DNA of 64,000 nt from the NCBI GenBank assembly GCA_020247545.1, contig JADCIX010000027.1:1-64000 (forward strand). The letters are read 5' to 3'. Shown piece after piece: positions 2,576 to 41,029 of this stretch (position 1 is its first letter; every line of letters starts with the position of its first letter). Origin of the DNA: Rhodocyclaceae bacterium. Lineage in GTDB: Bacteria > Pseudomonadota > Gammaproteobacteria > Burkholderiales > Usitatibacteraceae. A program made the translations under genes and the position numbers. The notes under the pieces are model-generated. The model searched no databases. It was not told the origin of the DNA and saw only the letters and a list, made by a program, of their open reading frames with translations.

Positions 2576-3092
2576 CGCGCAGCGTATCCGTCTGAGTGTG
2601 CTCGTCGCCGCACTTGTCGCGACGGTGGTTGCCTCGGTTTACCCAACAGATCAAGACTCTACCGATGTTGCGGTGACGGCATCCCGAGACGCCAACACCG
2701 CCTCAAGTTTTTCGATCAACGCGCCGCGTGAAGTTCAAGTCGCTCCTAAGGGAGACGAAGTGCGGGATCCCTTCGCCTCGCGGAAATGGGTGGCTCCACC
2801 GGCCCCGCCGCCGGTCGCGAGTCCAGCACCTGCACGCATCGACATCCCTGTGCCGCAACCGGCGTTACCACCTCCGATCCCGGTAATGCCTTACCGCTAT
2901 TCCGGCAGGCTCGCGGATGGCGCCGACGTCGTGTTGTATTTGAGCCGCGCCGATCAGATTTTTGCGGTGCGCGAAGGAGACTTGATTGAGGGACAGTACA
3001 AGGTGATGTCCATCGAAGACCGCAGGGTTCGGTTGCAACACCTGGCGTCAGGTGAATTGCAAAGCCTCGCATTGCCCGCCACGGAGAATTAG
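2562..3092 (+). CDS. GspC/PilP-like periplasmic adaptor ('secretion system X' type)
   Basis: The start is set at the ATG at 2562 (MRLSNAQRIRLSV) rather than an in-frame upstream codon, because it puts a membrane segment (residues about 9-26) near the N-terminus as in GspC. A proline-rich linker follows (about 75-110), then a compact domain (about 110-176, PYRYSGRLADGADVVLYL onward) resembling the homology region of GspC/PilP, which contacts the secretin. Proteins of this kind in betaproteobacteria are sometimes annotated 'secretion system X translation initiation factor', a misleading name. It sits directly upstream of the secretin with a 3-bp gap. Role in joining inner- and outer-membrane parts is inferred from family and position. 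Confidence 0.65.
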   Translation: MRLSNAQRIRLSVLVAALVATVVASVYPTDQDSTDVAVTASRDANTASSFSINAPREVQVAPKGDEVRDPFASRKWVAPPAPPPVASPAPARIDIPVPQPALPPPIPVMPYRYSGRLADGADVVLYLSRADQIFAVREGDLIEGQYKVMSIEDRRVRLQHLASGELQSLALPATEN

Positions 3093-3095
3093 CGC

Positions 3096-5405
3096 ATGTT
3101 ATCGTATCGTAGATACTGGCTTACCACCGCCGTTGTTACACTTGTGTTGCTGTCGGGGTGTGCCGCTTATCAACAACATCGCGAGGGATTGGAGGCGCTT
3201 GATCGTGGTCAGTTTGTAACCGGCTTGAGTGCATTAGCACGTGCCTCCGAACTGGAGCCCAACAACGTCCAATATCGCCGCGACTGGCTGATTCAGCGCG
3301 ACGCTGTTTCCACAAAGTTGATCGCACAGGCCAACGAAGCACTTGATGCGTCTCGGGCTGACGATGCGGAGTCGAAGTATCGCGAGGTTCTTAGTATTGA
3401 CAAGGACAATGCGCGCGCGCGCGCGGGGTTAGACAATGTCGCCAAGCTTCGTCGCGCGATGGAAGACGTTATTGATGCCAAGAAAGCGATGTCGGCCGGT
3501 GATGTGGCCAAGGCCGAGCGCATAGTGACCCTTGCCTTCGAACGCAGTCCCAACCACGTCGCCACCCGTGCACTGATGCGAGAAATCGAAGCCATCCGCT
3601 TCAGCGAGAGTGAGCAGGAGGCAACCCTTGGCGCGCTTTACAAAAAACCCATCAATCTCGAATTTCGCGATGCCACCATCAAAATGGTGTTCGATGCGCT
3701 GGCGCGCACAACCGGCATCAACTTTGTGTTTGACAAAGATGTTCGAACAGATCAAAAAACCACCGTATTTCTCAAACAGACCTCGCTCGAAGACTCGATC
3801 GACGTAATTCTTGCCACGAATCAGCTCGACAAAAAAATTCTCAATGCTGGCAGCGTACTTATCTATCCCAACACACCGACCAAGGTTCGTGAATATCAAG
3901 ACTTGGTCGTACGCGCGTTCTATCTCGCCAATGCTGAAGCGAAGAACACTGCCACCATGCTAAAGACGGTGTTGAAGTTGAAGGACGTGTACGTCGAAGA
4001 CCGCTACAACATGCTGATGCTCCGCGAGTCCGCCGATACAATTACACTCGCAGAGAAGCTCATCGCGTTGCACGATTTAGAAGAGCCCGAGGTGATGCTT
4101 GAGGTCGCCGTGCTCGAAATCAATCGCAGTAATCTGCTCAACTTGGGCGTACAGATTACCGACCAAATCACAGTGAGTCCAATCGGTGGTAGCACCAGTT
4201 CGAATTCAGGTGGATCCGGAACGACGACCACGTTCACCATCAATCAGTTGCGCCGCTTGAATTCCGATTTGCTGGGCGTATCCGCCCCGACGGCCACGAT
4301 TAACCTACAGATGCGCGATGGGGATGCCAAGTTGCTCGCCAATCCGAGCCTGCGCGTGCGTGACCGCGAGAAAGCACGCATTCTGATCGGTGACAAGGTT
4401 CCTGTAGTGACCACAACCGCGACCCCCAACGGTTTTTTATCAGAAAGCATCCAATACTTGGACGTGGGTCTGAAGCTGGAGGCCGAGCCCACCATTCGCG
4501 TCAACAATGAGATCGGCATCAAGCTGTCGCTTGAAGTGAGTTCCATCGTCAACCAAACGAGGACGAACAATGGGTCGCAGGCTTACCAAATCGGCACGCG
4601 CAATTACAACAGCGTCATCCGGCTGCGCGATGGGGAAACGCAGATTCTAGCGGGGCTGATTAGCGACGAGGATCGCACATCGGCAAATCGCATTCCGTTG
4701 ATCGGCAAACTCCCGGTGTTGGGGCGCTTGTTTTCGAGCCAGAGCGACTCGCGACAGAAAACCGAGATCGTCATGTCCATCACCCCAAAACTCATCCGCA
4801 ATATGCAGCGCAAAGACCCTAAGATGGAAACGTTCTGGTCGGGCACGGATGCGGCACTGCGCACGCGCCCCCTGCGCCTGCGTCGCGTAGACACGAGCCC
4901 TGCCGGCCCCACGCCCGCTGCCATGGCAGCCTCGACCGAGCGTGCACCGAAGCCCAAGCCAGCGGTGGTTGATTCCGGAGCCTCAGCAGGTGGACTTAGA
5001 TTTAGCTGGGAAGGCCCGATGGAAGCGCGCGCACGCAAGGATGTTCCGATGTCGTTGAACCTTATCGCCGCTGACCGTCTTCGCGCGCTCCCGCTGCAAA
5101 TCAGTTTCAATCCCTCTGAAGTGGAGATTGTGTCGGTCAGTGAAGGCGACTTCTTTGGCACGGGCGAGAGTGCCACCTTTGGTCACGTTGTCGATCAGCC
5201 GAGCGGCCGTATTTCAGTCGCGGCCAGCACGACATCTGCATCTGGCAAAAACGGCGAAGGTAAGCTATTGAATCTCGTCGTGCGCCTCGTTGGCAATGCT
5301 GCTGAGGCTGAGATCAGTTTGGTGGGAGCAAATATCGTCGCAGCGGGTGTCACGACGGAACGCCCAACGCTCCCCGTTTCTCACACAATCAAGCTCGTTC
5401 GGTGA
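3096..5405 (+). CDS. Secretin (GspD/PilQ/MshL-like) with C-terminal cohesin domain
   Basis: A 769-residue outer-membrane secretin lipoprotein. The N-terminus is a lipoprotein signal with lipobox LLSGC (Cys22). Residues about 25-170 form a helical, TPR-like region. About 185-260 is an N0/STN-type domain (INLEFRDATIKMVFDALA) and about 265-340 an N1 domain. The secretin core at about 345-570 contains the hallmarks VPVV near 434 and LIGKLPVLGRLF near 534. After a Pro/Ala linker, residues about 640-769 look like a cohesin domain (alternating beta pattern with FNPSEVEIVSV and GKLLNLVVRLVG). It should form the gated outer-membrane channel of the machine. Having only one or two N domains makes it closer to MSHA-type secretins than to classical GspD. 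The cohesin tail is the unusual part. Confidence 0.88.
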   Translation: MLSYRRYWLTTAVVTLVLLSGCAAYQQHREGLEALDRGQFVTGLSALARASELEPNNVQYRRDWLIQRDAVSTKLIAQANEALDASRADDAESKYREVLSIDKDNARARAGLDNVAKLRRAMEDVIDAKKAMSAGDVAKAERIVTLAFERSPNHVATRALMREIEAIRFSESEQEATLGALYKKPINLEFRDATIKMVFDALARTTGINFVFDKDVRTDQKTTVFLKQTSLEDSIDVILATNQLDKKILNAGSVLIYPNTPTKVREYQDLVVRAFYLANAEAKNTATMLKTVLKLKDVYVEDRYNMLMLRESADTITLAEKLIALHDLEEPEVMLEVAVLEINRSNLLNLGVQITDQITVSPIGGSTSSNSGGSGTTTTFTINQLRRLNSDLLGVSAPTATINLQMRDGDAKLLANPSLRVRDREKARILIGDKVPVVTTTATPNGFLSESIQYLDVGLKLEAEPTIRVNNEIGIKLSLEVSSIVNQTRTNNGSQAYQIGTRNYNSVIRLRDGETQILAGLISDEDRTSANRIPLIGKLPVLGRLFSSQSDSRQKTEIVMSITPKLIRNMQRKDPKMETFWSGTDAALRTRPLRLRRVDTSPAGPTPAAMAASTERAPKPKPAVVDSGASAGGLRFSWEGPMEARARKDVPMSLNLIAADRLRALPLQISFNPSEVEIVSVSEGDFFGTGESATFGHVVDQPSGRISVAASTTSASGKNGEGKLLNLVVRLVGNAAEAEISLVGANIVAAGVTTERPTLPVSHTIKLVR

Positions 5406-5418
5406 ACCAGCATCTGAC

Positions 5419-5901
5419 ATGACATCACATCGATCACCAACGCGCGGGTTCAGCCTGATCGAGCTCTTGGCCGCAGTCGCGATCGTGGGCTTGCTGGCCT
5501 CAATCGGCATTCCGCTTGCCGAAACGACGGCGAAACGAAGTAAAGAAGCGGAACTGCGATTAGCGTTGAAACAGATTCGTGAGGCCGTCGATGCATACAA
5601 GGGCGCGGTCATGGCCGGCCGCATCACGAGCGACCCGCAAAAGAGCGGCTATCCGCCGACGTTGGCCGAGCTCTCCACCGGTGTGGAGGATGTGTCTCGC
5701 CCCGGAGAGAAACTGTATTTTTTGCGGCGCATTCCACGAGACCCAATGCAGCTTGATCCATCGATTTCGGCAATCGACTCCTGGGGCAAGCGCAGCTTCG
5801 ACTCCCCGCCGGATCGTCCTCGTGAGGGACAGGATGTATTCGACGTATATTCGTTGTCGACAGAGCGTGGTTTGAACGGAGTACCTTATGCAGAATGGTA
5901 A
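5419..5901 (+). CDS. Type II pseudopilin (GspG/GspH-like)
   Basis: The start is taken at the ATG at 5419 because it leaves a short basic leader (MTSHRSPTRG) before the prepilin cleavage motif RG|FSLIELL. A 20-residue hydrophobic helix follows, with Glu at mature position 5, as needed for filament assembly. The remaining 130 residues resemble GspG-type globular domains, with the repeated signature 'RIPRDPMQ...DSWGKRSF...DVYSLS' and a C-terminal tryptophan. It should be cut and N-methylated by a prepilin peptidase, which is not encoded in this window. It follows the secretin by 13 bp and overlaps the next pseudopilin by 14 bp. Confidence 0.88.
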   Translation: MTSHRSPTRGFSLIELLAAVAIVGLLASIGIPLAETTAKRSKEAELRLALKQIREAVDAYKGAVMAGRITSDPQKSGYPPTLAELSTGVEDVSRPGEKLYFLRRIPRDPMQLDPSISAIDSWGKRSFDSPPDRPREGQDVFDVYSLSTERGLNGVPYAEW

Positions 5902-6286
5902 TGCGGGCGCAACGACGCCGTTGATGGGCTTCTCCTTGATTGAACTCTTGGTAAGCTTGGCGATATTGGCGACGATTCTCTCTCTAGCCGCACCGCGCTA
6001 TTTCAGCTCGGTCGACAAGGCCAAAGAGGCCGTGCTTCGCGAGAACCTCTACGTGATGCGCGACGCCATCGAAAAACATTTCTCTGACAATGGAAAGTAT
6101 CCCGCCGCACTCAGCGAACTGGTTACGAAAAAATACTTGCGCTCTATACCTTTGGATCCGTTTACGGAAAGCGCCAACAGTTGGATCACCATTCCGCCGG
6201 AAAATGCAGCCTTAGGAGCCATCATGGACGTTCGCAGTAGCGCGCCAAATCAGGGGCGCGACGGCACTTGGTTCAAGGATTGGTAA
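5888..6286 (+). CDS. Type II pseudopilin (GspG-like), second copy
   Basis: A 132-residue pseudopilin. The leader MQNGNAGATTPLMG is followed by the cleavage site G|FSLIELL and a hydrophobic helix with the conserved Glu5. The body has the GspG pattern 'YVMRDAIEKHFSDNGKYP', then 'SIPLDPF' and 'SWITI', with the 'GRDGTWFKDW' tail seen in the other pseudopilins here. The gene overlaps the upstream pseudopilin by 14 bp and precedes the next by 4 bp, so the three are probably translated together. Which of them is the major subunit cannot be told from sequence. Confidence 0.88.
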   Translation: MQNGNAGATTPLMGFSLIELLVSLAILATILSLAAPRYFSSVDKAKEAVLRENLYVMRDAIEKHFSDNGKYPAALSELVTKKYLRSIPLDPFTESANSWITIPPENAALGAIMDVRSSAPNQGRDGTWFKDW

Positions 6287-6290
6287 CGCC

Positions 6291-6749
6291 ATGATGCCTC
6301 GCGAATCAGGTTTCACTTACTTAGGTGCACTCTTCTTGGCAGCCGTGTTGGCCATCGTCGCGGCACGCGGGGTTGAAGTTACCGCGACCAAAGAGCAACG
6401 CGCACGCGAGGCTGAGCTTCTTTGGGTGGGCAGCGCCTACCGGGATGCCATACGCCAATACTACGTAAACACACCCGGTTATCAGAAGCGCTACCCGCCC
6501 GATTTGAAGGCTCTGCTCTTGGATGAGCGCCCAACGCGCCCGACGCGCCCTTTAAGAAAACTCTATCGCGACCCCATAACAGGAAATGAGCAGTGGGGAA
6601 TCATCGAGAGTCCAGATGCTGGTGTGATGGGCGTCTATTCGCTCTCCACACGCAAGCCCATCAAGGTCGACGGATTTACAGTTGAGTCGCTGGGCTTTAC
6701 GACCGCCAAGACCTATCAAGACTGGAAGTTTTCTTTTGAACCCAACTAA
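6291..6749 (+). CDS. Atypical pseudopilin lacking Glu5 (GspK-like tip position?)
   Basis: A 152-residue protein with a short leader (MMPRES) and a prepilin-like G|FTYLGALFLAAV segment. Mature position 5 is glycine instead of the near-invariant glutamate; among pseudopilins this loss is typical of GspK, which caps the tip. The body still looks GspG/GspH-like (YRDAIRQYYVNTPGYQKRYP, LYRDPITG, WGIIESPDAGVMGVYS) and lacks the large insert of GspK. It lies between two canonical pseudopilins in the same operon. I infer an accessory or tip subunit. The start could also be the second ATG, one codon downstream. Confidence 0.8.
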   Translation: MMPRESGFTYLGALFLAAVLAIVAARGVEVTATKEQRAREAELLWVGSAYRDAIRQYYVNTPGYQKRYPPDLKALLLDERPTRPTRPLRKLYRDPITGNEQWGIIESPDAGVMGVYSLSTRKPIKVDGFTVESLGFTTAKTYQDWKFSFEPN

Positions 6750-6785
6750 TGCTTTGCTCTTACTTCGCCTTTTAGGAGTCTCGTG

Positions 6786-7205
6786 ATGTCGCCACAAAAA
6801 CAAACTGGTTTCACCCTGCTAGAACTACTCATCGTTTTGCTGATCATTGGACTGCTAGCGGCATTTGTCGGCCCCAAATACTTCGGCCAAATCGGCAAAT
6901 CCCAAGCGCAAGTCGCGAAAGCGCAGATCGAGGCCTTCGATAAGGCTCTAGATCAGTATCGCCTTGACGTGGGGAAGTACCCCACTACCGCGCAAGGCTT
7001 GGACGCGCTCTTTGTTCCGCCACTCAATGAACCCAATTGGAAAGGCCCCTATCTCAAGAAGAACGTGCCGCTAGATCCATGGGGAAACGGATATGTTTTC
7101 ACTTCACCAGGCACACAACCAGGGCGCGACTTTGAGATCGTATCCTACGGGCGTGATGGCAAGTTTGGCGGCACAGGTGAAGATGCTGACATCACGAGTT
7201 GGTAA
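6786..7205 (+). CDS. gspG: Major pseudopilin GspG
   Basis: A clear GspG: short leader, cleavage site TG|FTLLELLIVLLIIGLLAA with Glu5, then the family pattern 'AFDKALDQYRLDVGKYPTTAQGLDAL', 'WKGPYLKKNVPLDPWGN' and 'YGRDGKFGGTGEDADITSW'. The C-terminal acidic loop corresponds to the calcium-binding site of GspG. The start is set at the ATG at 6786, six bases after an aggag ribosome site; an in-frame GTG lies one codon upstream. Length (139 residues) matches the family. It should be the main building block of the periplasmic filament. It follows a 36-bp gap, the largest in the pseudopilin block. Confidence 0.93.
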   Translation: MSPQKQTGFTLLELLIVLLIIGLLAAFVGPKYFGQIGKSQAQVAKAQIEAFDKALDQYRLDVGKYPTTAQGLDALFVPPLNEPNWKGPYLKKNVPLDPWGNGYVFTSPGTQPGRDFEIVSYGRDGKFGGTGEDADITSW

Positions 7206-34314: not shown

Positions 34315-34358
34315 TGGCGTCCCCACGGGGATTCGAACCCCGGTTACCGCCGTGAAAG
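34315..34358 (-). repeat. attL: 44-bp direct repeat, displaced 3' half of tRNA-Glu
   Basis: These 44 bases are identical to 40954-40997, the 3' half of the intact tRNA-Glu gene (CCA end, acceptor 3' strand, T-arm, variable loop and anticodon loop/stem 3' side). Beyond base 34358 the two copies diverge. Such a repeat at an anticodon loop is the usual crossover footprint of tyrosine integrases. Confidence 0.93.
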
Positions 34359-34507: not shown

Positions 34508-35788
34508 ATGGCTCAGAAAATGCGCGATGGGCAGTTGGAAAAGCGATCCAACCGCCTGAAATTGCCGCTTCGCACGCGGAAATACAAAATCCTCGATACG
34601 GGCGTAGCACTGAGCTACCGCCGAACGTCTGAGGATTACGGCACATGGGCTGTTCGGCTCGTTTTGGCTGACGGCAGATACACGCTAGAGACGCTTGGCA
34701 CAGCCGACGACTACGCAGACGCCAACGGGCAAACGATCTTGAGTTTTGGGCAAGCCCAAGCCAAGGCACTCAAACGCCACAAAGAACTTCAGCAAGCCGG
34801 GGGCGTGATTAAAGCCGCGACCACGGTAAAGGAAGCCTCAGAACATTATCTGGAATGGTTCAGGACGCATAGCAAGTCCATAGCGGCCACGGAAACCACG
34901 ATCAAGGCACATATCCTGCCGACGTTCGGGGAAACGCCCTTGGAAGACCTGAAAGCCGAGCGAATCAAATCTTGGCACACCCGACTAGCGACCAAGGCCG
35001 CAAGGAAGCGAACCCGCAAAGGCGCAGCAATCGCACACCGCGCCAAGCCGGAAACCGACGACGAAAAACGCTCCCGCAAATCCACGGCAAACCGCATCCT
35101 TACCGTTTTCAAGGCGATGTTAAACAAAGCCTACGAAGACGCCCTCGTTTCAACCAACGACGCTTGGAAGCGGGTAAAGCCATTCTCAGATGTTGACGAA
35201 CCCGTGATTCGTTTTCTCAAACCCGAGGAAGCCACGCGACTAATCAACGCTTGCCCGGAAGACTTTCGCCGATTGATAAAGGCCGCACTAATGACGGGCG
35301 CTCGTTACTCCGAACTGGCCGGAATGAAGGTAGAGGACTACTCGCCCGACACAAAGCAAGTCTTTATTCGCCCGAGTAAATCAGGCAAGGGCCGACACGT
35401 TCCACTAACGACTGAGGGCGCGGCATTGTTCGCAACGTGTACCGATGGCAAGACTGGCGACGCCCTAGTTTTTCAACGCAGTGACGGCGCGGCATGGGGG
35501 AAAAATTATCAAGTTCGCCCGTTATTGGAAGCCTGCAAAGTTGCCAAGATCGCGCCCTCGATTGGGTTCCACGAATTGCGCCATACCTACGCAAGTTTTC
35601 TAGCGAACGCCGGGGCCGACTTGCTCACGATCTCAAAACTACTTGGCCACGCGGACACCCGCATAACCTCACGCCACTACGCGCACCTATGCGACAAGAC
35701 ACTTCGCAACGCTGTAGACAAGTTCCTGCCGTCACTGACAGCAGAACCTAAGACCAAAGTAACACCGATCAAACGCAAGGCCGCTTAG
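34508..35788 (+). CDS. int: Tyrosine recombinase (island integrase)
   Basis: A 426-residue site-specific recombinase. The N-terminal region (about 30-90) resembles the arm-binding domain of phage integrases. A SAM-like core-binding domain spans about 100-215. The catalytic domain holds Arg near 266 (MTGARYSELAGM), Lys in KSGKGRHVPL, HELRHTYASFLANAG near 355 (His-x-x-Arg), GHADTRITSRHYAHL with the second His and the Tyr nucleophile near 391. The ATG is preceded by aaggggg. It starts 150 bp inside attL and reads into the island. It should integrate and, with an excision factor, excise the element at tRNA-Glu. Confidence 0.95.
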   Translation: MAQKMRDGQLEKRSNRLKLPLRTRKYKILDTGVALSYRRTSEDYGTWAVRLVLADGRYTLETLGTADDYADANGQTILSFGQAQAKALKRHKELQQAGGVIKAATTVKEASEHYLEWFRTHSKSIAATETTIKAHILPTFGETPLEDLKAERIKSWHTRLATKAARKRTRKGAAIAHRAKPETDDEKRSRKSTANRILTVFKAMLNKAYEDALVSTNDAWKRVKPFSDVDEPVIRFLKPEEATRLINACPEDFRRLIKAALMTGARYSELAGMKVEDYSPDTKQVFIRPSKSGKGRHVPLTTEGAALFATCTDGKTGDALVFQRSDGAAWGKNYQVRPLLEACKVAKIAPSIGFHELRHTYASFLANAGADLLTISKLLGHADTRITSRHYAHLCDKTLRNAVDKFLPSLTAEPKTKVTPIKRKAA

Positions 35789-36799: not shown

Positions 36800-36861
36800 G
36801 CACGTTTTAATGCCCCTACTGAGACGACGTTGTGTCGCCTCAAACACCAATAGGAGCAGTC

Positions 36862-37059
36862 ATGTATTCAACACCAACAGCTCAGGCCGCCGGATGGACA
36901 ATTCCAGACTGGTGCGCCTCAACGAGCATTTCTCGTGCTTCGTTCTACTTGCTCGCACAACGACCGCGAACTGTGAAGCTCGGACGCCGAACCGTCGTGA
37001 TCGAAAGCCCCGACGCATACCTTCAGCGAATCGCTGATACGCAACTGGAGGCCGCATGA
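36862..37059 (+). CDS. AlpA-like/MerR-type small DNA-binding protein
   Basis: A 65-residue protein, ATG at 36862 with aggag five bases upstream. The core GWTIPDWCASTSISRASFYLL, PRTVKLGRRTVVIESPDAYLQRIA has the AlpA/excisionase winged-helix pattern (helix-turn-helix, then a wing with K-G-RR). Such proteins act as transcriptional activators or excision factors in islands and satellites. It overlaps the next gene by 4 bp (ATGA). Confidence 0.75.
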   Translation: MYSTPTAQAAGWTIPDWCASTSISRASFYLLAQRPRTVKLGRRTVVIESPDAYLQRIADTQLEAA

Positions 37060-38760: not shown

Positions 38761-38782
38761 CAAAAAACCCGCCGGAGCGGGT
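38761..38782 (-). terminator. Terminator of the protease operon
   Basis: On the minus strand ACCCGC-TCCG-GCGGGT is followed directly by TTTTTTG. It lies 5 bp beyond the stop of the 70-residue gene. Confidence 0.9.
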
Positions 38783-38786
38783 CTTG

Positions 38787-38999
38787 TTAATACGCTTTTA
38801 CTTTATTGAGGCTTTCGACTGGGAACCCAGCCATTGCATCGAGCGGCAAAATATAGTCGCTCGGCTTAATGTGTTCATACATATCTGCCAATCTGCTGGC
38901 CTCTCTAATGGCGGCGTCAGCGAGTAATTTTTTGCTTACTTCCGCCTCGGCGGACTCAAGGCACTTTTCGACCATTTCCGCTAGCGTTGCTTGGGTCAT
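38787..38999 (-). CDS. Small partner protein of the Clp-fold protease (70 residues)
   Basis: A 70-residue, mostly helical and acidic protein (LAEMVEKCLESAEAEVSKKLLADAAIREASRLADMYEHI) with a C-terminal tail. No family is recognised. Its ATG overlaps the stop of the protease gene by 4 bp (ATGA) and a strong terminator follows, so the two are co-translated. It might be an inhibitor, adaptor or specificity factor of the protease; this is inference from layout. Confidence 0.7.
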   Translation of the reverse strand: MTQATLAEMVEKCLESAEAEVSKKLLADAAIREASRLADMYEHIKPSDYILPLDAMAGFPVESLNKVKAY

Positions 39000-39871
39000 A
39001 TGACGGTCTCCTTCAGATGTGAGTGTAAATAAAACGCTAACCCCATGCGATCAGTGTACGCGGTAAGTAAATCGTTATAACCCCGAATTGCGCTGCTTAA
39101 TCCGAGGTTATTCGAGTAATCGTCAATTTCCAGACCAATTTGCTTTAGCTTCTTGATGTCCAACGCACGGCCATGAGAAAACCATTTTTTATGGTCGGCA
39201 AGATCTGTAGCGACAACTTTAGCGCGGTTTATTTTTTCGTCCTGTGTTACGGGCTGGCCAGCGTTGTGGGTTCTGTGCTTGGTCCAAGTGCTAAATTTGT
39301 GCTCTGCTAACCAAGTCTTGAGCAGGTCAATCGAGAGGTTCTTCGCCTGTTCGTAAAGTGCCAACTTCGCCAAATCCAAGCCCTTAAGAAACACAACATC
39401 TGCGGGAGTTAGATTGCTTCGTTTTGTAATCTCTTCTACCTTATCCAGATATCCTAATGCCGCAACGTATCCGCTCCCATCGGGAGCAAGCACTTGCGGA
39501 TCAATGGGTCCAAGTGCCGACGAATAGTCCATGTATATCTTGTCCCCAGACATACAAAAAATCGTGCCTGCGGACATTGCCAAATCCGGCACAATAAAAT
39601 TCACCTTTGTATAAAAGTTTCGAACCACCGTAACGAAGCGCTCCGTGGTTTCGGCAGACCCGCCCGGGGTGCGCAGAACAATGGAAAGTGTTTGCTCTGT
39701 TCTTTTAGATTTGGCCTTTACATCTTCAACGTAATTTCGGAAGAGCCGAAAGTATTGGGGATGAATTTGCCCGAAATAGCAAATCACATCAGAGCCCAGT
39801 AAATTCTCTAATTCCTTCCCTTTTTCGTTGATGTGGTGAAGGATTGTGTGGTCTAAATCAGCTGGATTCAC
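38996..39871 (-). CDS. SDH-type Clp-fold serine protease
   Basis: A 291-residue protein with the crotonase/ClpP-like fold of the serine dehydrogenase proteinase family. Signatures are SIVLRTPGGSAETTERF (residues about 63-79, oxyanion-hole glycines), FIVPDLAMSAGTIFCMSGD with the likely nucleophile Ser100, and YMDYSSALGPIDPQVLAP (121-130). The C-terminal 120 residues are helical with a charged HRTHNAGQPVTQDEK segment. There is no signal peptide or membrane anchor, so it should be cytoplasmic, unlike SppA. Encoded against the direction of the other island genes, as cargo genes often are. Substrate unknown. Confidence 0.85.
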   Translation of the reverse strand: MNPADLDHTILHHINEKGKELENLLGSDVICYFGQIHPQYFRLFRNYVEDVKAKSKRTEQTLSIVLRTPGGSAETTERFVTVVRNFYTKVNFIVPDLAMSAGTIFCMSGDKIYMDYSSALGPIDPQVLAPDGSGYVAALGYLDKVEEITKRSNLTPADVVFLKGLDLAKLALYEQAKNLSIDLLKTWLAEHKFSTWTKHRTHNAGQPVTQDEKINRAKVVATDLADHKKWFSHGRALDIKKLKQIGLEIDDYSNNLGLSSAIRGYNDLLTAYTDRMGLAFYLHSHLKETVI

Positions 39872-40265
39872 GGCTCGCTCGCCAATAAGTTGCCGAAGAA
39901 TAGCAGATTTCTAAACGTAGCAAGCTTTTTCCAGCGGATGGGATTTAGAGCCGTCGGCTCGTGAATTTCGCGCGAATCAACGCTGCGCGGTGTGCGCTCG
40001 CCCGGCTAGCCCAGCTACTATTAGACAATCGAAAAATGCTCAAATCCCAGCCGACAAGTCAGCCTAACAACTCTTTGTAAATCAAGGACTTAGGCTTTGA
40101 TACAAAGCCCTTTCCAATCAACAACTTAACGATGAGTCAATGTGCCTTAGAAATCAATGGTTTGCGTTAATTCAACCAGTCGGTAACATGGCTTCCGCAC
40201 CCAAAAACAACGGCAGGTTCAAATGTCCCAAATCCGTGAATGACCTTTGTGAGGAAACTTTCATC
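39872..40265. other. Island intergenic region, about 390 bp
   Basis: It lies between the protease gene (minus) and the exported-protein gene (plus) and should hold both promoters. An in-frame upstream extension of the exported protein to 40140 exists but would bury its signal peptide. I see no RNA gene or clear promoter boxes. Confidence 0.45.
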
Positions 40266-40859
40266 ATGAATCTAGCCTTCAGGTGGAGAGCTTGTCTCGC
40301 GCTTATTTTAGTTATTGGCATTAGCGCAGCGGGCGCAGAAGAATTGCCCGTTACTGAAAAGCTTCTGCAAAAGACGGGCGTTAATTTGGAAACTCATATT
40401 GGCGGACAGATATTCAAAGTGAAGCGAACTGGTCCGCTACCAAACATTCTGGGCAAAGCGGATTGGTTCGGCAGAACAGTAGATAAAGGATTTTTGGAAC
40501 TACGCTTCCACGCTTTTGCCCCCGACAAGACAGTTGTGCTCAGACTGGTAGACGTCGACACGAGGTCGAATGAAACAACGATGAATCGAAATCAGGTTGA
40601 AACGACAAGACTCAACGGCGAGATTCGAACCGGCCCCGGAAGCAATACGTCGCAAATATCGGGGACAGCGACAACGATCCGTTCCCCTGCCGCTGGCGTC
40701 AACGAGATTCTCCCGCCCAACACTACAGAGATCAGGTTAGACCTCAACAAACGGCGCACGCTGAAGATTGGAACTGTAGTTTTAAAAGTTGACGACGCGG
40801 ACGAAGTCTCCCTTTCATATTCACTTGCTCTTGCCGATGATGAAGGCACGAAAAAATGA
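40266..40859 (+). CDS. Exported island protein of unknown function
   Basis: The start at 40266 (MNLAFRWRACLALILVIGISAAGAEELP) gives a normal signal peptide with cleavage after SAAGA. The 197-residue product has a mature part that is beta-rich (GQIFKVKRTGPLPNILGKADWFGRTVDKGFLELRF in parts) with a Thr/Ser/Asn-rich middle. No family is recognised. It lies at the right end of the island just before the arm-type repeats and terminator, a typical cargo position. Confidence 0.65.
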   Translation: MNLAFRWRACLALILVIGISAAGAEELPVTEKLLQKTGVNLETHIGGQIFKVKRTGPLPNILGKADWFGRTVDKGFLELRFHAFAPDKTVVLRLVDVDTRSNETTMNRNQVETTRLNGEIRTGPGSNTSQISGTATTIRSPAAGVNEILPPNTTEIRLDLNKRRTLKIGTVVLKVDDADEVSLSYSLALADDEGTKK

Positions 40860-40953: not shown

Positions 40954-41029
40954 TGGCGTCCCCACGGGGATTCGAACCCCGGTTACCGCCGTGAAAGGGC
41001 GATGTCCTAGGCCTCTAGACGATGGGGAC
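40954..41029 (-). tRNA. tRNA-Glu (anticodon TTC), island target; 3' half = attR
   Basis: The minus strand gives GTCCCC...GGGGAC acceptor pairing, a D-arm with ATCGTCTAGAGGCCTAGGA, anticodon stem TCGCC/GGCGG around CTTTCAC (anticodon TTC), T-arm GGGGTTCGAATCCCC and encoded CCA at 40954-40956. Bases 40954-40997 are the attR copy of the 44-bp repeat, so the island restores a complete tRNA. Confidence 0.97.

What the first reader, a model, noticed from the sequence alone, without database searches (positions are those of the whole stretch)
38787..39871. Coupled Clp-fold serine protease plus 70-residue partner as island cargo
The SDH-type protease keeps its nucleophile region (Ser100 in AMSAGT) and oxyanion glycines (TPGGS). 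Its partner starts within the ATGA overlap and the pair has its own terminator, on the strand opposite to the mobility genes. Two-gene, self-contained, opposite-strand modules in satellites are often defence or toxin-antitoxin-like. No described defence system that I recall has exactly this pair.
Basis: partly seen in the sequence, partly recalled or inferred. Interest (0 to 1): 0.75.

Follow-up and report, generated by a model that had tools for sequence, protein, structure and literature searches.

The report
Clp-fold protease with conserved small partner
A protein-cutting enzyme gene and a tiny gene joined to it travel together through bacterial islands and dormant viruses of at least eight phyla, often in the slot where such viruses keep genes that shut out other viruses; the pair is undescribed as far as I could find, and is a testable candidate phage-exclusion system.

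Summary
Window 38996-39871(-) encodes a 291-aa Clp-fold serine protease. 38787-38999(-) encodes a 70-aa partner overlapping it by ATGA. The pair is cargo of a 6.6-kb integrase/AlpA island between 44-bp copies of a tRNA-Glu 3' end.

The pairing is real and general. Of 86 non-redundant relatives with readable downstream DNA, 66 carry an HMM-recognisable partner immediately downstream and nearly all the rest another small abutting ORF. For comparison, 71/76 protease genes but only 90/531 other genes have an abutting ATG ORF of that size. The partner fits no Pfam, NCBIfam, PADLOC or PHROG family, evolves about three times faster than the protease, and in E. coli is under purifying selection. The clade scores far below NCBI's canonical SDH cut-off, and canonical SDH genes lack the partner.

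The family is sporadic and absent from same-genus relatives. In prophages it often follows the cI-type repressor, the place of lambda rexAB. In one E. coli prophage backbone that slot holds either this pair or a type II restriction-modification system.

Best reading (inferred): a lysogenically expressed phage-exclusion module, with the protease as effector and the partner as its dedicated regulator. Defence, partner role and substrate are untested. No description was found.

The parts
38996..39871 (-). Clp-fold (SDH-type) serine protease, 291 aa, GTG start; nucleophile Ser100, oxyanion Gly70-Gly71, invariant LGP-x-DPQ motif, Lys192 invariant in all rows
   Evidence: PF01972 57.9 bits; PHROG 11747 1e-55; Ser100 = PH1510 Ser97; invariants; Clp/SppA fold of relatives L050 and L033
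38787..38999 (-). partner protein, 70 aa, ATGA overlap with the protease; by homology two helices plus flexible C-terminal tail (Y-x-LPLDAMAG)
   Evidence: conserved abutting ORF in relatives; no known family; helices in the AF2 models of relatives
38762..38782 (-). terminator-like hairpin with T run just downstream of the partner gene
   Evidence: direct reading; the scan finds the stem at 38767-38782 but no more sites than chance
34315..34358 (.). left end repeat (att) of the island: 44 bp copy of the tRNA-Glu 3' end
   Evidence: 44-bp identity with 40954-40997
40954..40997 (.). right end repeat (att): 3' part of tRNA-Glu(ttc) gene 40954-41029(-)
34508..35788 (+). tyrosine integrase of the island (context)
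   Evidence: PF00589 6e-25; 82% relative in a same-genus genome with other cargo
36832..37059 (+). AlpA-like regulator of the island (context)
   Evidence: weak PF05930 match, E 0.012; 80% relative beside the related integrase in L191

Best explanation
A mobile two-gene phage-exclusion module. Gene 1 is a Clp-fold Ser protease (effector). Gene 2, translated from the overlapping start, is a fast-evolving small two-helix protein that binds the protease and controls it, most likely by keeping it inactive or directing it until an infection signal changes this. The active protease then cleaves a host or phage protein and stops the infection. SHOWN: both genes, their conserved pairing and spacing, an intact catalytic Ser, the Clp fold of relatives, spread on islands, prophages and plasmids across phyla, location behind prophage repressors, and exchange with a restriction-modification system in the same slot. 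INFERRED: anti-phage activity, the direct complex, inhibition rather than activation by the partner, and the substrate.
For: Pairing: HMM partner downstream in 66 of 86 non-redundant loci and other abutting small ORFs in nearly all the rest; 71/76 vs 90/531 control; leave-group-out 58/76. Co-divergence Mantel r 0.59 vs null maximum 0.12, as expected for co-inherited neighbours. Slot: protease+partner 72-437 nt behind the cI/LexA-type repressor in several E. coli prophage types; S24/cI-like repressor directly upstream in 10 of 81 non-redundant loci. Slot-swapping: behind a 98.6%-identical repressor with the same flanking protein accessions, L080 has the pair and L200 has an Eco57I-type methylase plus BsuBI/PstI endonuclease; behind the L071-type repressor other strains have hypothetical+DUF1828, one 345-aa ORF or a hypothetical ORF followed by SieB. 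Some loci have R-M genes nearby: L014 type IIG/PglX-like, L032 type III. Cargo: same-genus relative island L191 shares integrase (82%) and AlpA (80%) but not the pair. Asymmetry: partner-only alleles exist (L079, L205-L209, one deletion ending 13 nt before the partner start) and an IS-split protease keeps an intact partner (L081); protease without any abutting small ORF only in L132/L133 and damaged copies. Partner dN about 3-4 times that of the protease, dN<dS in the E. coli pair.
Against: No activity data. Many loci sit beside ordinary metabolic genes, so defence-island enrichment is only moderate and was not tested statistically. AlphaFold leaves the partner tail disordered even beside the protease, and no contact map was available, so a complex is not shown. 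The partner-only alleles come from one deletion event. Genes in the rex-type slot can also serve other lysogenic functions.
Confidence: 0.5

Rival explanations
1. Toxin-antitoxin-like stabilisation (addiction) module: the protease is toxic and the partner is its labile inhibitor; the main role is keeping the island, prophage or plasmid, with phage exclusion a side effect or absent.
For: Translational coupling; mobile and sporadic; on plasmids; partner-only alleles and a broken protease with intact partner are seen while the reverse is rare.
Against: No toxicity data; partner-only alleles are one event; exchange with an R-M system in the repressor-linked slot does not separate addiction from exclusion, since R-M systems do both.
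Confidence: 0.22
2. Protease with a dedicated adaptor or activator: the partner's helices dock on the protease and the tail or a variable surface brings a substrate; the partner is needed for activity rather than inhibiting it.
For: Variable partner with conserved helix arrangement; high partner substitution rate; same gene order and tight coupling throughout.
Against: Partner is retained alone in several prophage copies, which an adaptor without its enzyme does not explain unless neutral; L132/L133 lack it.
Confidence: 0.15
3. Lysogeny-control or anti-repressor protease: cleaves the prophage repressor or a host stress factor to tune induction, not defence.
For: Adjacency to cI/LexA-type repressors in 10 of 81 loci.
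Against: Most loci, including the window, have no repressor next to the pair; the slot is occupied by R-M or other genes in sister prophages, so it is not needed for the switch.
Confidence: 0.07
4. Ordinary SDH/SppA housekeeping protease or phage head-maturation protease with a chance downstream ORF.
For: Shares the fold and Pfam family; some distant phage relatives lie among late genes.
Against: NF047768 66 vs cut-off 250 and NF045542 29 vs 120 bits; partner conservation; absent from same-genus relatives.
Confidence: 0.04

Closest known systems
SDH-type ClpP-like serine proteases (Pfam PF01972; NCBIfam NF047768 Clp_like_SDH)
   Same: Clp fold, Ser nucleophile, GG oxyanion; over the Pfam cut-off
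   Different: All ten tested members of this clade and the window itself score at most 75 bits against an equivalog cut-off of 250; canonical members over the cut-off lack the small partner
1510-N (PH1510, NfeD-type membrane protease, PDB 3bpp/6m4b)
   Same: closest solved sequence; Ser97 aligns with Ser100
   Different: NfeD1b domain score below its cut-off (24.8 vs 40); the alignment ends before the catalytic Lys138, so the general base here is unproven
SppA (PDB 3rst, 4kwb) and ClpP
   Same: same fold in predicted models of relatives
   Different: low identity (10-16%); ClpP family score below its cut-off; no AAA+ partner gene seen
lambda RexAB and other repressor-linked exclusion cassettes
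   Same: same position behind the prophage repressor, two genes, exchangeable
   Different: neither protein matches a Rex family in Pfam or PADLOC; the enzyme is a protease
Head-maturation proteases (NF045542, PHROG 53/1684)
   Same: distant Clp-fold similarity
   Different: below cut-off (28.9 vs 120); not in structural gene clusters in the window or in the repressor-linked prophages

Membership tests
Pfam SDH_protease PF01972 | score over the curated gathering cut-off | tested here: met
   57.9 vs 31.3 bits
NCBIfam Clp_like_SDH NF047768 (canonical SDH proteinase) | score over the equivalog cut-off (250 bits) | tested here: not met
   window 66.1; ten relatives 51.7-75.2
ClpP (PF00574) | score over the gathering cut-off | tested here: not met
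   14.3 vs 20.2 bits
ClpP (PF00574) | Clp/crotonase fold | tested here: met
   VIA Z 14.6 to ClpP1P2 for a 61%-identical relative; fold alone does not make it ClpP
Phage head-maturation protease NF045542 | score over cut-off and location among head genes | tested here: not met
   28.9 vs 120 bits; island and immunity-region contexts
RexAB exclusion system | sequence membership of RexA/RexB families | tested here: inconclusive
   no Rex family among Pfam or PADLOC matches, but whether each library holds a Rex model was not checked
RexAB-like exclusion cassette (works like) | position behind the prophage repressor, exchangeable with other exclusion genes | tested here: met
   (relatives; the window island has no such repressor)
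Known defence systems in PADLOC-DB 2.0.0 | match of either protein to any model | tested here: not met
   no match at E<=0.1 for either protein
Toxin-antitoxin module | partner neutralises a toxic protease | not testable with these tools
   needs expression experiments
Anti-phage defence system | reduces phage plating or burst | not testable with these tools
   needs plating experiments
Serine protease | intact nucleophile | tested here: met
   Ser100 invariant and aligned with PH1510 Ser97
Serine protease | general base (Lys or His) identified | tested here: inconclusive
   Lys192 and His233 are invariant in all 76 rows; no coordinates to measure distances to Ser100

The most novel reading that the evidence does not exclude
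A previously undescribed anti-phage (superinfection exclusion) system in at least eight bacterial phyla, in which a Clp-fold protease that needs no ATPase is held in check by a translationally coupled, rapidly evolving small inhibitor, with partner-only prophages using the inhibitor as immunity against other prophages' copies.
Probability: 0.3. Interest if true: 0.82.

Novelty: new variant of a known kind. Interest (0 to 1): 0.62.

Why it matters
Repressor-linked prophage genes are a rich source of new immunity mechanisms. I know of few defence effectors that are stand-alone proteases with a dedicated small regulator. A compact pair already present in 17 of 5,426 complete E. coli genomes makes the question directly testable with standard phage collections. 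The partner-only alleles offer a built-in test of the inhibitor hypothesis.

Tried and rejected
Housekeeping SDH gene: rejected (equivalog cut-off missed, absent in same-genus relatives). Head-maturation protease: rejected for the window. Chance ORF for the partner: rejected. The natural in-frame read-through of relatives (stop read as Ser) was folded as a stand-in for the complex; helices are confident, the tail is not, and without coordinates no contact can be claimed. The first leave-out test with single-linkage groups was uninformative because one group held 63 of 76 members; repeated with average linkage. PDB search with the single sequence gave nothing; the profile did. Eight literature searches and two papers (RexAB in P. 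putida PMC12894663, DefensePredictor PMC13092281) gave no description of the pair; the library lacks most subscription papers and all preprints. L211 as a partner relative was a chance match.

Full report
OBSERVATION. The protease matches Pfam SDH_protease above its cut-off and phage family PHROG 11747 (unknown function, 1e-55). It does not match any PADLOC model. The partner matches nothing in four libraries. Ser100 in AMSAGT is invariant and aligns with the catalytic Ser97 of PH1510; the solved S97A mutant carries Ala in that column. Models of two relatives (L050, 61% identical; L033) have the Clp/SppA fold (fold search on the L050 model; L033 model).

THE ELEMENT. A 44-bp direct repeat (34315-34358 and 40954-40997), which is the 3' part of tRNA-Glu(ttc), brackets a 6.6-kb island with a tyrosine integrase and an AlpA-like gene on the other strand. 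A same-genus genome has a related integrase (82%) and AlpA (80%) followed by primase-like ORFs and no pair. None of 12 same-genus or 15 same-family genomes searched has the protease. The pair is therefore exchangeable cargo.

THE MODULE. Scans gave 45 genome and 24 viral loci, then 65 viral loci with the family alignment, partly the same contigs. After 90% clustering, 86 loci have readable downstream DNA. In 66 a partner HMM hits immediately downstream, with no hit below E 1e-3 elsewhere in the loci; most of the other 20 still have an abutting small ORF. Of 76 chosen partners, 75 start between -8 and +60 nt from the protease stop and 20 overlap it by 1 or 4 nt. Control: 71/76 protease genes vs 90/531 other genes have an abutting ATG ORF of 45-110 aa. 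When whole sequence groups are left out of training, the abutting ORF is still the top hit in 58 of 76 loci. Partners share an N-terminal helix, a second helix and, in many, a tail of the type Y/F-x-L-x-P or YGP (40 of 76 vs 17 in shuffles; the motif was chosen after looking). Partner amino-acid divergence runs far ahead of the protease (51% vs 17% in the closest class). dN is about 3-4 times higher, while dN stays below dS in the E. coli pair.

NOT THE HOUSEKEEPING GENE. Window and ten relatives score 52-75 bits against the canonical SDH cut-off of 250. Four canonical genes found in the phylum have no partner. Members at E<1e-60 occur in 4 of 274 genomes of the class. The own genome has one true member. 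Members come from at least eight phyla; some are metagenome bins, where misbinning is possible.

CONTEXT. In E. coli, 17 of 5,426 complete genomes carry the pair; every copy I opened is in a prophage immunity region right behind a cI/LexA-type repressor, where lambda has rexAB. Ten of 81 non-redundant loci have an S24/cI-like repressor directly upstream. In one prophage backbone, with identical flanking protein accessions and a 98.6% identical repressor, the slot holds this pair (L080) or an Eco57I-type methylase with a BsuBI/PstI endonuclease (L200). Behind the L071-type repressor other strains have other cassettes, in one case followed by SieB. Some loci have R-M genes nearby, others only metabolic genes. 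In enterobacterial prophages a deletion removed the protease but ended 13 nt before the partner, leaving identical intact partners in L079 and L205-L209. An IS-split protease also keeps its partner. The reverse, protease with no abutting small ORF, was seen only in L132/L133 and damaged copies.

INTERPRETATION. Shown: a real, conserved, mobile two-gene module with an intact catalytic Ser that occupies an exchangeable, lysogenically placed prophage slot used also by R-M genes. Inferred: phage exclusion by proteolysis, regulated by the partner. Inhibitor, adaptor and addiction models remain open; the partner-only alleles lean towards inhibitor or immunity, but they are one event. The general base (Lys192 or another residue) is not established. 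No description of the pair was found in the open papers searched, which does not cover preprints or most subscription journals. The lambda rexAB comparison and the statement that few defence effectors are stand-alone proteases with a small regulator rest on general knowledge.

Noticed in passing
L140, L142, L076 (downstream of protease): A subclade of about 370-400 aa proteases ends in a zinc-ribbon-like CPxC motif; in L140 and L142 a different small partner (DPIEKLRxIVMD) follows, suggesting a second partner family.
   Followed up: no
L075 (Rhizobium gallicum plasmid) 3063-7088: Protease and small ORF lie directly after multiubiquitin, ThiF and DUF6527 genes, a bacterial ubiquitin-like operon.
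   Followed up: no
L196 3236-4542, L199 3243-4549: The same repressor-linked slot holds an uncharacterised hypothetical + DUF1828 pair in several E. coli prophages, another candidate exclusion cassette.
   Followed up: no
L197 3219-4256: A single uncharacterised 345-aa ORF occupies the same repressor-linked slot.
   Followed up: no
L079 4014-4184, L205-L209: Partner-only alleles: protease deleted, partner ORF intact and identical in prophages with two different repressors.
   Followed up: partly
window 40140-40859: 239-aa ORF inside the island near the right att, no family found, with a hydrophobic N-terminal stretch that looks like a signal peptide.
   Followed up: no
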